From contig NZ_CP006850.1 of the NCBI RefSeq assembly GCF_000523235.1, positions 558,001 through 622,000 on the forward strand: DNA of 64,000 bases. The letters are read 5' to 3'. The DNA is from Nocardia nova SH22a (GTDB lineage: Bacteria > Actinomycetota > Actinomycetes > Mycobacteriales > Mycobacteriaceae). The position numbers and the translations under genes are program-made. The notes beneath the pieces were generated by a model. It had not been told where the DNA came from and ran no database searches. It saw nothing but the letters and a program-made list of their open reading frames with translations. Below are positions 21,733 through 56,873 of the stretch, piece after piece (position 1 is the stretch's first letter; the number at the start of each line of letters is the position of its first letter).

Positions 21733-23031
<1,299 letters not shown>

Positions 23032-28162: not shown

Positions 28163-28176
28163 TAGAACAGGTTCTT
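28163..28176. promoter_or_regulatory. KstR operator between DUF35-ltp operon and F420-type oxidoreductase
   Basis: TAGAACAGGTTCTT matches TNNAACNNGTTNNA except the last base. On the minus strand its final TA begins TACTCG; on the plus strand TATTCT (28176-28181) could serve the oxidoreductase. Confidence 0.8.
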
Positions 28177-28241
28177 ATTCTGGTGGCAAGAGTTACCGGG
28201 GAGTCGCGGTCCGGCGGCACCGCCGGCGAAAGGAGTCGATG

Positions 28242-29279
28242 ATGCGATTCGGATTGCAACTCGGATATTGGGGCGCCGCTCCGCCGCCGAATGCCGCCGA
28301 GTTGGTGGCGGCCGCCGAGGACGCCGGATTCGACGCCGTCTTCGCCGCGGAGTCGTGGGGGTCGGATGCCTTCACACCGCTCGCGTGGTGGGGTTCGGCG
28401 ACGAACCGGGTGCGGCTGGGCACCTCGGTGGTCCAGTTGTCCGCGCGCACGCCGACCGCGACCGCGATGGCGGCGCTCACCCTCGATCACCTCAGCGGTG
28501 GCAGGCACATCCTGGGGCTGGGCGTATCCGGGCCGCAGGTGGTCGAGGGCTGGTACGGCCAGCCGTTTGCCAAGCCGCTGGCCCGCACCCGCGAATACGT
28601 GGGGATCATCCGGCAGGTGCTGGCCCGCGAGGCTCCGGTGGTCAATGACGGCAAGCACTACCCGCTGCCCTACAACGGCCCGGGCGCCACCGGTCTCGGC
28701 AAGCCGCTCAAGCCGATAACCCACCCGCTACGTGCGGATGTGCCGATCTGGCTCGGCGCCGAAGGGCCCAAGAATGTGGCGCTGACGGCCGAGATCGCCG
28801 ACGGCTGGCTGGCGATCTACTACACTCCGCGGCTGGCCGCGATGTACGACGAATGGCTCGACGAGGGTTTCGCGCGTCCGGGCGCCCGGCGTTCGCGGGA
28901 GGATTTCGAGATAGCGGCGAGCTGTCAGGTGATCATCACCGACGACCCGCGTACCGAGATCGACCGGATCAAGCCGGTGATGGCGCTCTACATCGGCGGC
29001 ATGGGCGCCGAGGAGTTGAACTTCCACGCCCAGGTGTACCGCCGGATGGGCTACGGCGCCGAGGTCGACGAGATCACCAGACTGTTCCGCGCCGGTCGCA
29101 AGGAGGAGGCGGCGGCGGTGATTCCGGATCAGCTGATCCTCGACACCGCGATCATCGGCGACGAGGACCATGTGCGCTCGCAACTGAAGGTCTGGGAGGC
29201 CGCGGGCGTCGGCATGCTCACGGTGTCCCTGCGCGATGTCGGACAGTTGCAGCGCCTGGCACCCCTTGTCCAGTCGTAG
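28242..29279 (+). CDS. LLM-class F420-type oxidoreductase (Rv3520c-like)
   Basis: A 345-residue luciferase-like monooxygenase-fold protein: MRFGLQLGYWG, AEDAGFDAVFAAESWGSDAFTPL, RVRLGTSVVQLSARTPTATAMAALTLDHLSGGRHILGLGVSGPQVVEGWYG and VPIWLGAEGPKN. Rv3520c is its positional counterpart and is annotated as a coenzyme F420-dependent oxidoreductase of the KstR regulon; its substrate is unknown. ATG 28242 lies 6 nt after AGGAG (ATG 28239 is possible). The stop TAG is itself the first three bases of a perfect KstR operator. Confidence 0.84.
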   Translation: MRFGLQLGYWGAAPPPNAAELVAAAEDAGFDAVFAAESWGSDAFTPLAWWGSATNRVRLGTSVVQLSARTPTATAMAALTLDHLSGGRHILGLGVSGPQVVEGWYGQPFAKPLARTREYVGIIRQVLAREAPVVNDGKHYPLPYNGPGATGLGKPLKPITHPLRADVPIWLGAEGPKNVALTAEIADGWLAIYYTPRLAAMYDEWLDEGFARPGARRSREDFEIAASCQVIITDDPRTEIDRIKPVMALYIGGMGAEELNFHAQVYRRMGYGAEVDEITRLFRAGRKEEAAAVIPDQLILDTAIIGDEDHVRSQLKVWEAAGVGMLTVSLRDVGQLQRLAPLVQS

Positions 29280-29290
29280 AACACGTTCTA
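29277..29290 (+). promoter_or_regulatory. Orphan perfect KstR operator overlapping a stop codon
   Basis: TAGAACACGTTCTA is a perfect 14-bp palindrome and fits TNNAACNNGTTNNA fully. Its first TAG is the stop of the oxidoreductase. Its terminal TA starts TAGATT (29289-29294), a good -10, as at other KstR promoters here. fadD19 has its own operator 270 bp further on, so this one has no assigned gene. Confidence 0.85.
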
Positions 29291-29300
29291 GATTCGAGGG

Positions 29301-29465
29301 CGACTCGGATCGAGGGACGCACAAGCGCACGCTGCGCGCGCGTAGGTGACCGCGTAGCGACGAGACTCGCGGATCGAGGCCGGTGCTCCGTCCGTCCTGC
29401 CCTGTGACGGGGTGCCCTCGATCCGCGCAACCGAGCCCGCCTGGTGGTGCCAGGCGGGCTCGTCG
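29301..29465 (+). ncRNA. Candidate KstR-controlled structured small RNA
   Basis: Predicted to start about 6 nt after the -10 TAGATT and to end at the terminator 29433-29461. No start codon is present at the predicted start. The segment holds a perfect 12-bp stem CGCGGATCGAGG (29368-29379) / CCTCGATCCGCG (29416-29427) with an inner partial CCGTC/GACGG pairing, directly followed by the second 12-bp stem. The RNA is an inference from promoter geometry plus structure; the alternative is an attenuated leader of fadD19. Confidence 0.4.
29433..29461 (+). terminator. Hairpin terminator upstream of fadD19
   Basis: Perfect 12-bp arms GAGCCCGCCTGG (29433-29444) and CCAGGCGGGCTC (29450-29461) with a 5-nt loop. 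It ends transcription from the oxidoreductase gene and from any promoter at 29289. Confidence 0.82.
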
Positions 29466-29549: not shown

Positions 29550-29567
29550 GAGAACACGTTCTATTTT
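29550..29567 (+). promoter_or_regulatory. KstR operator and -10 of fadD19, leaderless GTG
   Basis: GAGAACACGTTCTA (29550-29563) differs from the consensus only in the first base. Its last TA begins TATTTT (29562-29567), which ends exactly 6 nt before GTG 29574. Confidence 0.85.
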
Positions 29568-29573
29568 GTTCCT

Positions 29574-31223
29574 GTGAGCTACAACATAGCGGACCTTGTC
29601 GAACACACTATCGACCTCGTGCCGGACCGTGTCGCGCTGGCCGACGACGTCCGCTCGGTGACCTATGCCGAGCTGGAGGACCGGGCCAACCGATTGGCGC
29701 ACCACCTGCAAGAACAGGGTGTGCAACCGGGTGACAAGGTCGGCATCTACTCGCGTAACACGATCGAGGCCGTGGAGACCATGGTCGCGATCTTCAAGGC
29801 GCGGGCAGTGATGGTCAACGTGAACTTCCGATACGTCGAGAACGAGTTGCAGTACATCTTCGAGAATTCGGATATGGTCGCGCTTGTTCACGAGCGTCGG
29901 TACAGCGACAAGGTGTCCGCTGTTCGGCCGAATACGCCGAAGCTGAAGGCGGTCGTCGCCGTGAACGACGGCACCGAGGATCAGGTGCCGCTGGCCGCGG
30001 ATTCGGTGGAATACGAGGCGGCCCTGGCGAGTACGTCCGGTGAGCGCGACTTCGGCGACCGTTCCAACGACGACATCATGATGATCTACACCGGCGGCAC
30101 CACCGGTATGCCCAAGGGCGTCATGTGGCGCCAGGAGGACTGGTGGCGGGTGCTCGGCGGTGGCATCAACTTCGTCACCGGTGAGGCGATCGAGGACGAG
30201 TGGCAGCAGGCCAAGGCCGGCGCCGCGGGCCCGCAGATGGTGCGCTACCCGATTCCGCCGATGATCCACGGCGGTTCGCAGTCGGCGACCTTCCACGGCC
30301 TGTTCGACGGCGGTAAGACGATCATGCTGCCGGAGTTCACCGCGCACGGCGTGTGGCAGGCCATCGACCGCCACGGCGTGAACCTCATCTTCATCACCGG
30401 CGACGCCATGGCGCGGCCCATGCTCGACGCGTTGAAGGCCGGGCACCCGGAAACTGGTGCGGCCTACCAGCATTCGAATCTGTGGGCGCTGGCCAGCAGT
30501 GCGGCGCTGTTCTCCCCGGCGCTCAAGGACGAGTTCATCGAGCTGCTGCCGAACACCGTGATCACCGACTCGATCGGCTCCTCGGAGACCGGCTTCGGCG
30601 GTCTGTCGGTCGCGGCCAAGGGCGCCACCCACACCGGCGGGCCGCGGGTCAAGATCGACGCCTCCACCGCCGTCCTCGACGACGAGGGGAATCCGGTCGC
30701 GGCCGGTTCCGGTCAGGTCGGTCTGCTGGCCCGCACCGGCAACATCCCGCTCGGCTACTACAACGACCCGGTCAAGACCGCGGCGACGTTCAAGGAGTTC
30801 AACGGGATTCGCTACTCGATCCCGGGGGACTTCGCCCGCGTCGAGGAGGACGGCAGCGTCACCATGCTGGGCCGTGGCTCGGTCAGCATCAACAGCGGTG
30901 GCGAGAAGATCTATCCCGAGGAGGTCGAGGGTGCGCTGAAGTGCCATCCGGAGATCTTCGACGCGCTGGTGATCGGCGTGCCGGACGAGCGCTGGGGGCA
31001 GCGGGTGGCCGCGGTCGTGCAGTGCCGTGGCGGTAACCGGCCGACCCTCGAGGAACTGCGCCCGGTGCTGAGCCAGGAGATCTCCGCCTACAAGCTGCCG
31101 CGCAGTCTGTGGTTCGTCGACGAGATCAAGCGGTCACCGGCCGGTAAGCCCGATTACCGCTGGGCCAACGACCATGCCCAGTCGCGTCCGGCCGACGAGG
31201 AAGCGCACGCCTCCGCAAAGTAG
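29574..31223 (+). CDS. fadD19: FadD19, steroid side-chain acyl-CoA ligase
   Basis: An ANL-superfamily ligase of 549 residues. The P-loop YTGGTTGMPKGVMWRQEDWW, the downstream GSSETGFGG and the C-terminal RSPAGKPDYRW lysine motif are in order. FadD19 CoA-activates steroid-26-oic acids made by CYP125 and is required for C-24-branched sterols. Sequence style (MSYNIADLVEHTIDLVPDRVAL) and the KstR promoter agree with Rv3515c. GTG 29574 has no ribosome site and a -10 six nt upstream, so translation is likely leaderless. Confidence 0.92.
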   Translation: MSYNIADLVEHTIDLVPDRVALADDVRSVTYAELEDRANRLAHHLQEQGVQPGDKVGIYSRNTIEAVETMVAIFKARAVMVNVNFRYVENELQYIFENSDMVALVHERRYSDKVSAVRPNTPKLKAVVAVNDGTEDQVPLAADSVEYEAALASTSGERDFGDRSNDDIMMIYTGGTTGMPKGVMWRQEDWWRVLGGGINFVTGEAIEDEWQQAKAGAAGPQMVRYPIPPMIHGGSQSATFHGLFDGGKTIMLPEFTAHGVWQAIDRHGVNLIFITGDAMARPMLDALKAGHPETGAAYQHSNLWALASSAALFSPALKDEFIELLPNTVITDSIGSSETGFGGLSVAAKGATHTGGPRVKIDASTAVLDDEGNPVAAGSGQVGLLARTGNIPLGYYNDPVKTAATFKEFNGIRYSIPGDFARVEEDGSVTMLGRGSVSINSGGEKIYPEEVEGALKCHPEIFDALVIGVPDERWGQRVAAVVQCRGGNRPTLEELRPVLSQEISAYKLPRSLWFVDEIKRSPAGKPDYRWANDHAQSRPADEEAHASAK

Positions 31224-31304: not shown

Positions 31305-31431
31305 CACGATGCGGTGTCCTCGCCTCGACAGGTGGCCGTTGTGCGCCATTACGCGGCACGGTTGTGGTCGGACGGTGATGCCCCGGTTTCCGGGGTGTTT
31401 TCTGTCGGTGGGCTGTGCCACAGTGATCGGC

Positions 31432-32430
31432 ATGAGCGAAAAGGCGTCCACCGGCACGGTCGACGATGTGCTGCAGCAATTCGAGGGTTACCGGCGCGAG
31501 CTGTGTGCTTACGCCTACCGCATGCTGGGTTCCTCCTTCGAGGCCGAGGACGCGGTACAGGACACGTTCACCCGGGCGTGGAAGGCCTACGACTCGTTCG
31601 AGGGCCGGTCCAGCGTGCGGTCCTGGCTGTACAAGATCTGCACCAATATCTGCCTGGACATGCTCGACGGGCCGCAGCGGCGGGCCCGGCCGATGGATCT
31701 GTCCGGTCCGTCGCGGCCGGACAGTCCGATGCCGCCGCCGCAGCCGGACTACGTCTGGGTCGAGCCGATTCCGAACGCACTGGCCTTCGGCGCCGACCCG
31801 GCCGAGCACGCGAGTACCAAGGACTCGCTGCGGCTGGCCTTCGTCGCGGCCTGTCAGCATCTGCCCGCCACCCAGCGCGCGATTCTGATCATGCGTGAGG
31901 TGCTGCGGTTCTCGGCGAACGAGACCGCCGAAATGCTCACCATGTCACCGGCTTCGGTCAACAGCGCCCTGCAGCGGGCCCGCGCCACCATGTCGAAGGT
32001 GCAGCCGTCGGAGTCCGGTAGCTACGACGAATCCGATGACGAACAGCGCGGACTCGTCGACAATTTCGTCCGAGCCTTCGAGGCCTACGATATGGACGCG
32101 CTCACGTCGCTGCTGAAACAGGATGTGGCGCTGTCGATGCCGCCGCTCGAACTGTGGATCTCGGGTCCGGAGAATGTCGCGGAGTTCATGCTCTCGGAGG
32201 GGCCCTCGGCCTGCCGCGGCTCCCGGATGGTTCCGCTGGCGGGCGCCAACGGACTGCCCGCCTTCGGCCAGTACAAGCCCACCGACGAGCCGGGGGTGTT
32301 CTCGCCCTGGTCGATCACGGTGCTGGAACTCGACGGCGGCGAGATCAGCGGCCTGAACTTCTTCCTAGACACCGAACGCCTGTTTCCGCTGTTCGGCCTG
32401 CCGGCAGAGCTGCGCGAACCCGCCGAGTAG
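31432..32430 (+). CDS. ECF-type sigma factor with SnoaL-like extension (SigG/SigX5 type)
   Basis: A 332-residue sigma-70-family protein. Region 2 is YRRELCAYAYRMLGSSFEAEDAVQDTFTRAW with DSFEGRSSVRSWLYKICTNICLDML; region 4 is LPATQRAILIMREVLRFSANETAEMLTMSPASVNSALQRARA. The remaining C-terminal 120 residues (DNFVRAFEAYDMDALTSLLKQDVALSMPP) form an NTF2/SnoaL-like domain, as in SigG, SigJ and SigX5-type factors, where it modulates activity. No anti-sigma gene is adjacent, which fits this class. ATG 31432 has a weak upstream site. Confidence 0.83.
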   Translation: MSEKASTGTVDDVLQQFEGYRRELCAYAYRMLGSSFEAEDAVQDTFTRAWKAYDSFEGRSSVRSWLYKICTNICLDMLDGPQRRARPMDLSGPSRPDSPMPPPQPDYVWVEPIPNALAFGADPAEHASTKDSLRLAFVAACQHLPATQRAILIMREVLRFSANETAEMLTMSPASVNSALQRARATMSKVQPSESGSYDESDDEQRGLVDNFVRAFEAYDMDALTSLLKQDVALSMPPLELWISGPENVAEFMLSEGPSACRGSRMVPLAGANGLPAFGQYKPTDEPGVFSPWSITVLELDGGEISGLNFFLDTERLFPLFGLPAELREPAE

Positions 32431-56801: not shown

Positions 56802-56873
56802 GCCTCCTTAGCTCAGTGGTAGAGCACCGCTCTTGTAAAGCGAAGGTCGTCAGTTCAATCCTGACAGGGGGCT
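56802..56873 (+). tRNA. tRNA-Thr (anticodon TGT)
   Basis: Cloverleaf: acceptor GCCTCCT/AGGGGGC (one U-G pair), D arm GCTC...GAGC, anticodon loop CTTGTAA with TGT at 56834-56836, T arm GTCAG TTCAATC CTGAC, discriminator T. CCA is not encoded. The anticodon stem closes four pairs and has a C-A mismatch at 27-43 (56827/56843), where the mycobacterial form I recall has C-G. Confidence 0.93.

What the first reader, a model, noticed from the sequence alone, without database searches (positions are those of the whole stretch)
29277..29465. Orphan perfect KstR operator driving a structured, apparently non-coding transcript
TAGAACACGTTCTA is the best KstR palindrome in the window, yet no gene starts behind it. 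Its terminal TA begins TAGATT, the same operator/-10 geometry as at fadD19, hsd4A and the mce4 operon. Where a leaderless GTG would sit (29301) there is none. The following 165 nt fold into two adjacent perfect 12-bp hairpins, the second a terminator, and fadD19 has its own operator and promoter downstream. Inference: a steroid-induced small RNA, or an attenuated leader. The operator also uses the stop codon of the upstream gene.
Basis: partly seen in the sequence, partly recalled or inferred. Interest (0 to 1): 0.8.

Follow-up and report, generated by a model that had tools for sequence, protein, structure and literature searches.

The report
Switch left behind by deleted gene
A steroid-sensing on/off switch with no gene behind it turns out to be the two ends and the stop signal of an enzyme gene whose 1.5-kilobase middle was deleted in this Nocardia, so it is best read as a recent genetic scar rather than a purpose-built small RNA, although some related lineages keep a similar gene-less switch for unknown reasons.

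Summary
A perfect KstR palindrome (29277-29290) overlaps the stop codon of an LLM oxidoreductase gene, TAGATT follows, no gene starts at 29301, and two strong hairpins precede fadD19's own operator. The explanation is a gene deletion. In 86 of 147 tabulated Nocardia rows the same operator is followed, at offset 24-25 from its first base, by the start codon of an open frame of 510-532 codons encoding an AMP-binding acyl-CoA ligase. The window keeps only that gene's first ~23 nt (start codon mutated), its last ~37 nt with the old stop (29355-29357), and its 3' hairpins. Its sister lineage has the intact gene, so the loss is recent. The own genome has no ortholog (best paralog 49%). A short induced RNA may still be made, but it would be the fused ends of a dead gene. 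One result runs the other way: in one clade without the ligase, a KstR-like site at the same place is kept in 15 of 15 genomes although the sequence beyond it is scrambled. A second function of this operator in the genus is not excluded. For the window itself, recency explains retention.

The parts
28163..28176 (+). KstR-type operator (TAGAACAGGTTCTT) between the LLM gene and the divergent ChsH2-like gene
   Evidence: 2 mismatches; 11 of 12; PF01796 on the divergent gene; not tested further
28239..29279 (+). LLM class F420-dependent oxidoreductase gene (Rv3520c subfamily); its stop TAG is 29277-29279; start codon not settled
   Evidence: TIGR03559 504.7 bits, cutoff 335; PF00296
29277..29290 (+). 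orphan perfect KstR operator TAGAACACGTTCTA, overlapping the LLM stop codon
   Evidence: same place in relatives, where it precedes the ligase gene
29289..29294 (+). presumed -10 element TAGATT
   Evidence: sequence; same geometry as fadD19 TATTTT; TAGATT or TAAATT in the 13 ligase-bearing relatives printed
29291..29320 (+). leader plus 5' remnant of the deleted ligase gene; GCG at 29300-29302 stands where relatives have the start GTG, and the relatives' following ATG is ATC
   Evidence: alignment to L061 and L063; 22 of 29 aligned bases identical to L061; 29291-29322 against 500 single-base shuffles for each of 9 relatives: 0 to 14 of 500 reach the observed score
29321..29323 (+). deletion junction; 3 nt (ACA) match both ends relative to sister L061 (to 29326, overlap of 6 nt, relative to L063)
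   Evidence: overlap of the two BLAST matches (query 1-57 and 52-200)
29321..29357 (+). 3' remnant of the ligase gene; old stop codon TAG at 29355-29357
   Evidence: 31 of 37 aligned bases identical to L061; 29319-29362 against single-base shuffles: 0 of 500 reach the observed score for each of 9 relatives
29368..29427 (+). hairpin 1 (12-bp perfect outer stem), 3' region of the lost gene
   Evidence: consensus stem in the 9-row alignment with a two-sided change in the window at columns 17/71
29432..29462 (+). hairpin 2, presumed terminator of the lost gene, now upstream of fadD19
29550..29563 (+). fadD19's own KstR operator
29574..31223 (+). fadD19-type acyl-CoA synthetase, GTG start 24 nt after the operator's first base

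Best explanation
The interval is the scar of a recently deleted KstR-regulated gene. Ancestrally the operator-promoter at the end of the LLM gene drove a probably leaderless acyl-CoA ligase gene (516 codons in the closest relatives; AMP-binding family, nearest curated models PRK12406 and FadD4, both below their cut-offs), which ended at two 3' hairpins that stop transcription before fadD19. In the window's lineage about 1.49 kb between two short matching stretches was lost, joining the first ~23 nt of the gene to its last ~37 nt. The operator and -10 are intact because the loss is recent and there has been little time for decay. When steroid removes KstR, RNA polymerase probably still starts near 29301 and stops near 29462, giving a ~165-nt untranslated, useless RNA. 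Shown: the relatives' gene, both remnants, the junction, the old stop, the conserved hairpins, absence of an ortholog elsewhere in the genome, and the intact gene in the sister lineage. Inferred: KstR binding, the start site, termination, lack of function.
For: In 8 genomes the operator part (query up to 57) and the hairpin part (query from 52) of the interval both match, ~1.5 kb apart. A 516-codon ORF starts at +25 in the close relatives; a GTG or ATG at operator offset 24 or 25 opens an in-frame ORF of 510-532 codons in 86 of 86 ligase-bearing rows. Head and tail remnants align to gene start and gene end. The hairpins follow the gene's stop codon in the 8 close relatives aligned; the ninth, L065, has an insertion between them and was left out. 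Window sister L061 has the intact gene (SH-aLRT 95). No ortholog in the own genome: best paralog 49% identical, against 91-98% to L063's ligase among the 8 other close congeners. The outgroup Aldersonia has the same operator/stop overlap and the gene behind it, so presence is the likely ancestral state. Intermediate decay is seen in L062 (the N. veterana record L216): operator intact, ligase in four tblastn pieces, gap 1270.
Against: In clade A, which has no ligase, a KstR-like core is kept in 15 of 15 genomes with the flank scrambled, so operators without their gene are not always neutral debris. Six of the other 29 'empty' congeners also keep a 12/12 operator. Hairpin 1 has a two-sided base change in the window and is a perfect stem there, which mild selection on structure would also give. 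The head remnant alone is short and its alignment is not overwhelming (up to 14 of 500 shuffles as good). A phylogeny-corrected test that gene loss goes with operator decay has only 3 to 5 usable pairs and cannot reach significance.
Confidence: 0.9

Rival explanations
1. The operator at the end of the LLM gene has a second function that does not need the ligase: KstR bound there acts as a roadblock or insulator, or as a promoter for a very short RNA ended by the next hairpin, and the window keeps it for that reason.
For: In clade A (no ligase) AAC(T/C)TGTTnCAGA directly at the LLM stop is kept in 15 of 15 genomes; the six core bases are 100% identical while the 34 nt from +16 have 0.34 mean pairwise identity without gaps. 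A neutral simulation on the LLM tree gives P 0.0008 at the gene's mean rate; third codon positions differ somewhat more (0.251) than the simulation at that rate (0.195). Five of 5 genomes of the non-monophyletic group A2 and 10 of 17 of clade B keep the core.
Against: The groups were chosen after seeing the data. At half the gene's mean rate P for clade A is 0.038. Clade B is compatible with neutral decay (P 0.07 at the mean rate, 0.48 at half of it). Sixteen of 30 empty rows have lost the site. The position of the last -10 base is not conserved in clade A (0.52-0.55). KstR binding to the variant was not tested.
Confidence: 0.25
2. A purpose-built steroid-induced small RNA.
For: Intact operator and -10, strong structure (z -4.15), no leaderless ORF.
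Against: The sequence is the two ends of a gene. The hairpins exist as the 3' end of the ligase gene in relatives. No Rfam family at gathering cut-off. None of the other 29 empty congeners has a match to the hairpin part at this locus at E <= 0.001 (one, G003, has a weak match elsewhere in its genome).
Confidence: 0.05
3. An attenuated leader of fadD19.
For: The transcript would run toward fadD19 and end at a hairpin.
Against: fadD19 has its own operator and -10 with the leaderless spacing, and congeners that lack the whole element keep an operator there (for example L088, L095, L123).
Confidence: 0.03
4. Insertion of the ligase gene in relatives into an ancestral operator-hairpin unit, not deletion here.
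For: Of 27 non-Nocardia loci examined, 4 have a ligase match of 44% or more within the stretch, and only one (Aldersonia) has it directly behind the LLM gene with an operator.
Against: The window holds remnants of both gene ends including start and stop contexts; Aldersonia has operator and gene; a decaying copy exists in N. veterana.
Confidence: 0.03

Closest known systems
KstR operators of the cholesterol regulon (Kendall et al. 2007, PMC1995591, passages seen)
   Same: Core TnnAACnnGTTnnA; 14-bp palindrome TAGAAC(N2)GTTCTA partly overlapping the -10 region, as here.
   Different: Those sites are mostly read as standing before regulated genes; the paper reports derepression of genes flanking 26 of 31 M. 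smegmatis motifs, with the other five possibly not relevant, and four further sites that overlap coding sequence or lie in an operon. This one has no gene behind it because the gene was deleted.
Gene remnants / pseudogene scars from deletion between short direct repeats (general knowledge, recalled)
   Same: Both gene ends kept, middle lost, a few matching bases at the junction, decaying start codon.
   Different: Here the regulated promoter and the terminator-like hairpins are intact, so the scar looks like a complete promoter-to-terminator unit.
Intergenic small RNAs reported in sterol-grown Mycobacterium neoaurum (PMC4845491, passages seen)
   Same: Intergenic, possibly steroid-responsive transcripts.
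   Different: Defined there by RNA-seq; no sequence link to this interval was tested.

Membership tests
KstR operator | core TnnAACnnGTTnnA | tested here: met
   12 of 12 specified bases of TAGAACNNGTTCTA
KstR operator | overlap with -10 region and fixed spacing to a start | tested here: met
   TAGATT at 29289-29294; relatives' start codon at offset 24-25 in 86 of 86
KstR operator | KstR binding and derepression | not testable with these tools
   needs gel shift and kstR mutant
Remnant of a deleted gene | homology to both ends of a gene intact in relatives at the same place | tested here: met
Remnant of a deleted gene | no intact ortholog elsewhere in the genome | tested here: met
   best match 49% over query residues 20-513; no match at E <= 1e-150
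Remnant of a deleted gene | close relative with the intact gene | tested here: met
   sister L061, ligase 91% identical to L063's over 516 aa
Dedicated small RNA | RNA conserved on its own, apart from the neighbouring gene | tested here: not met
   sequence is gene ends plus the gene's 3' hairpins; no match to the hairpin part at this locus in the other 29 empty congeners
Dedicated small RNA | known RNA family | tested here: not met
   only a tRNA (56802-56873) at gathering cut-off in the whole window
Dedicated small RNA | transcript detected | not testable with these tools
   no RNA data at hand
Attenuated leader | downstream gene depends on it | tested here: not met
   fadD19 has its own operator and leaderless spacing; by sequence only

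The most novel reading that the evidence does not exclude
A KstR operator welded to the LLM stop codon does a second job that outlives the ligase gene. In several Nocardia lineages without the ligase, KstR binding at the end of the LLM gene, next to a hairpin, is kept by selection (roadblock, insulation against convergent transcription, or a hairpin-only RNA), and the window's orphan unit is a young member of that set.
Probability: 0.2. Interest if true: 0.65.

Novelty: new member of a known kind. Interest (0 to 1): 0.38.

Why it matters
It warns that a perfect operator and a structured downstream RNA can be debris: comparison with relatives turns an apparent regulatory RNA into a gene-loss scar. 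The genus offers a natural series (intact gene, decaying copy, deleted gene with operator, deleted gene without operator) for measuring how fast a repressor site decays once its target is gone. The clade in which it does not decay makes a second role of KstR sites directly testable. It also shows that a steroid-regulated acyl-CoA ligase has been lost several times in Nocardia (9 changes on the best tree, at least 5 forced by well-supported branches).

Tried and rejected
Small RNA and fadD19 attenuator readings: rejected for the window because the interval is the fused ends of a gene. My first score for operator decay (matches to TAGAACNNGTTCTA) understated retention: TAGAACnnGTTTCA, which scores 10 of 12, fits Kendall's core and is the type of the window site at 23018, so I re-examined the lineages without ligase by the AACnnGTT core. 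Phylogenetically independent pairs for 'gene lost, operator decayed': 3 and 5 pairs on supported branches, inconclusive. Other GAACNNGTTNCAGAA sites in three clade A genomes and the window genome (13 sites): a few lie near starts of an SDR-like ORF and an ORF resembling a ferredoxin reductase (named by eye; no family search made), others do not; suggestive only. Six paper searches: I saw nothing about this scar or about orphan KstR operators in the listings; the library lacks most subscription journals. Of papers I saw passages of four (PMC1995591, PMC3068626, PMC3388012, PMC4845491), no whole text. Rfam: nothing here.

Sampling: 150 genomes of the genus, the window's included, were searched. 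I fetched the stretch from 147 of 149 congeners; G124 (best match only E 2e-77) and G141 were not fetched. L215 (G106) was cut off at a contig end and dropped. That leaves 147 rows with the window: 86 with ligase, 4 partial (L062 plus three with 54-56% identical partial matches), 30 empty (gap under 320 nt, the window among them), 27 other (no ligase match above 45%; other genes, or fadD19 not within the stretch).

Full report
What is there. The window interval begins with TAGAACACGTTCTA at 29277-29290, whose first three bases are the stop codon of an LLM F420-dependent oxidoreductase gene (TIGR03559). TAGATT follows; no listed ORF starts where a leaderless gene should. Two strong hairpins follow, and then fadD19 with its own operator at 29550-29563. 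The palindrome is not a chance match: the 8.35-Mb genome holds 9 perfect copies and none of the backwards control. The published KstR core is TnnAACnnGTTnnA and the fuller palindrome TAGAAC(N2)GTTCTA overlaps the -10 (PMC1995591, passages seen). KstR sites are described as among the most conserved non-coding sequences, in sequence and position within their promoters, out to Rhodococcus and Nocardia (PMC3388012, passages seen).

What relatives have. A DNA search of 150 genomes of the genus found the interval in two pieces in 8 of the closest ones. Query bases up to 57 (operator end) lie directly after the LLM gene; bases 52-200 (hairpin end) lie about 1.5 kb further on (in a ninth, G123, only the hairpin end passed the cut-off). 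I fetched the LLM-to-fadD19 stretch of 147 of 149 congeners. Between operator and hairpins the close relatives have a 516-codon ORF that starts with GTG at +25 and ends at +1575. It is an AMP-binding ligase (PF00501, PF13193). Its nearest curated models are PRK12406 (492.5 bits, cut-off 701) and FadD4 (488.5, cut-off 850), so it is not a member of either by their own thresholds. In 86 of 86 ligase-bearing rows a GTG (76) or ATG (10) at operator offset 24 or 25 (0-based) opens an ORF of 510-532 codons. Of these 86 operators 85 are 12/12 and one is 11/12; in 76 of 86 the LLM stop TAG is the operator's first triplet. Whether that first codon or a nearby in-frame ATG is the true start in relatives was not tested.

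The scar. Window 29248-29323 aligns with the end of the LLM gene, the operator and the first bases of the ligase gene of sister L061; window 29321 onward aligns with the last 38 nt of that gene and its 3' region. The GTG has become GCG (29300-29302), and the old stop TAG is at 29355-29357. The net length difference to L061 is 1492 nt (gaps 1789 and 297). At the junction 3 nt match both sides (L061); the alignments overlap by 6 nt with L063. The tail remnant exceeds all 500 single-base shuffles for each of 9 relatives; the head remnant beyond the operator is short and weaker (0 to 14 of 500 shuffles reach it), but its place directly behind the operator adds to it. Identity to L061 is 13/14 in the operator, 22/29 in the head remnant, 31/37 in the tail remnant, 167/185 in the 3' region (gaps not counted), and 114 LLM bases of about 1035 differ.

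The hairpins. In 8 close relatives aligned with the window (A1; L065 left out for an insertion) both stems follow the ligase stop codon. Three of 42 predicted pairs have a change on both sides in at least one sequence, two of them (columns 11/116 and 17/71) in the window; the covariation term is small (-0.24 kcal/mol). They are best read as the 3' end and terminator of the lost gene. The U-tract is weak and the simple scan did not call a terminator.

Timing and direction. In a tree of the LLM gene (147 Nocardia rows, 4 outgroups; quick IQ-TREE) the window pairs with L061, which has the intact ligase (SH-aLRT 95). Ligase presence needs 9 changes on the best tree, of which starred branches force 5. 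The outgroup Aldersonia (L291) has the operator at the LLM stop and the ligase at 76% identity behind it, so presence is the likely ancestral state. Of the 27 non-Nocardia loci examined only Aldersonia has both there; two Rhodococcus loci have a weaker ligase match (44-46%) on the opposite strand and Antrihabitans one at 74% about 1.25 kb on; 25 of the 27 have no operator of 9/12 or better behind the LLM gene (the other besides Aldersonia is R. oryzae, 9/12). The own genome has no ortholog (best paralog 49%). Ligase relatives at E <= 1e-150 occur in 59 of 301 genomes and 10 of 31 genera of the family.

Does an operator survive without its gene? Of 30 empty rows, 7 (with the window) have a 12/12 site, 1 has 11, 5 have 10, 1 has 9 and 16 have none. 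For the window recency suffices. But clade A (15 rows, none with a ligase) has AAC(T/C)TGTTnCAGA at the LLM stop in 15 of 15, with 100% identity in the six core bases against 0.34 in the 34 nt from +16 and 0.66 in 26 coding bases upstream (no gaps allowed in this count, so downstream identity is a floor). Neutral simulation gives P 0.0008 for 15 of 15 at the gene's mean rate, and 0.038 at half that rate; for clade B (10 of 17) P is 0.07 and 0.48. Third positions differ by 0.251 on average in clade A, against the simulated 0.195 at the mean rate. The clades were picked after inspection, and the model assumes that the site was present in their ancestor. By my crude codon-composition filter no + strand ORF stands close behind the site in clade A: 7 of 15 show no qualifying ORF on either strand within 2.5 kb, and only two show a + strand one, at +507 and +766. 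I therefore report a second function as open, not as shown.

Verdict. An ordinary but instructive event: deletion of a KstR-regulated ligase gene that spared its promoter and 3' hairpins.

Noticed in passing
L171, L150, L175, L181, L155, L165, L182, L157, L118, L131, L167, L149, L173, L152, L161: first ~20 nt at the LLM stop codon: Conserved GAAC(T/C)TGTTnCAGA element, KstR-like, in 15 of 15 genomes that lack the ligase gene, followed by unlike, often hairpin-like sequence.
   Followed up: partly
L195 and L204, behind the operator at +20/+21: The operator is perfect but the ORF behind it is a different AMP-ligase-like protein (25-28% identical to the usual one), as if the regulated gene had been swapped.
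   Followed up: no
L087, L149, L195 and others with a gap of about 4 kb: Between ligase (or its place) and fadD19 these genomes hold, on the minus strand, an ORF resembling the sigma-factor-like one at window 31309-32430 (Sigma70_r2 and r4_2); L087 also shows an enoyl-CoA-hydratase-like ORF (both named by eye), so the cluster has been rearranged within the genus.
   Followed up: no
L062 / L216 (N. veterana): A decaying copy of the ligase gene with intact operator: pieces in different frames and a central part missing.
   Followed up: partly
G000:C1 383333, 522876, 4735832, 4977186, 7104634, 7508528, 7512897, 8307907: The eight other perfect TAGAACNNGTTCTA sites of the genome; by a crude ORF filter only 7508528 showed an ORF start within 40 nt, so further gene-less sites may exist, but the filter misses many genes.
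   Followed up: partly
L065:4221-4425: An ~80-nt insertion that looks like an inverted repeat (by eye) sits between the two 3' hairpins in this genome.
   Followed up: no
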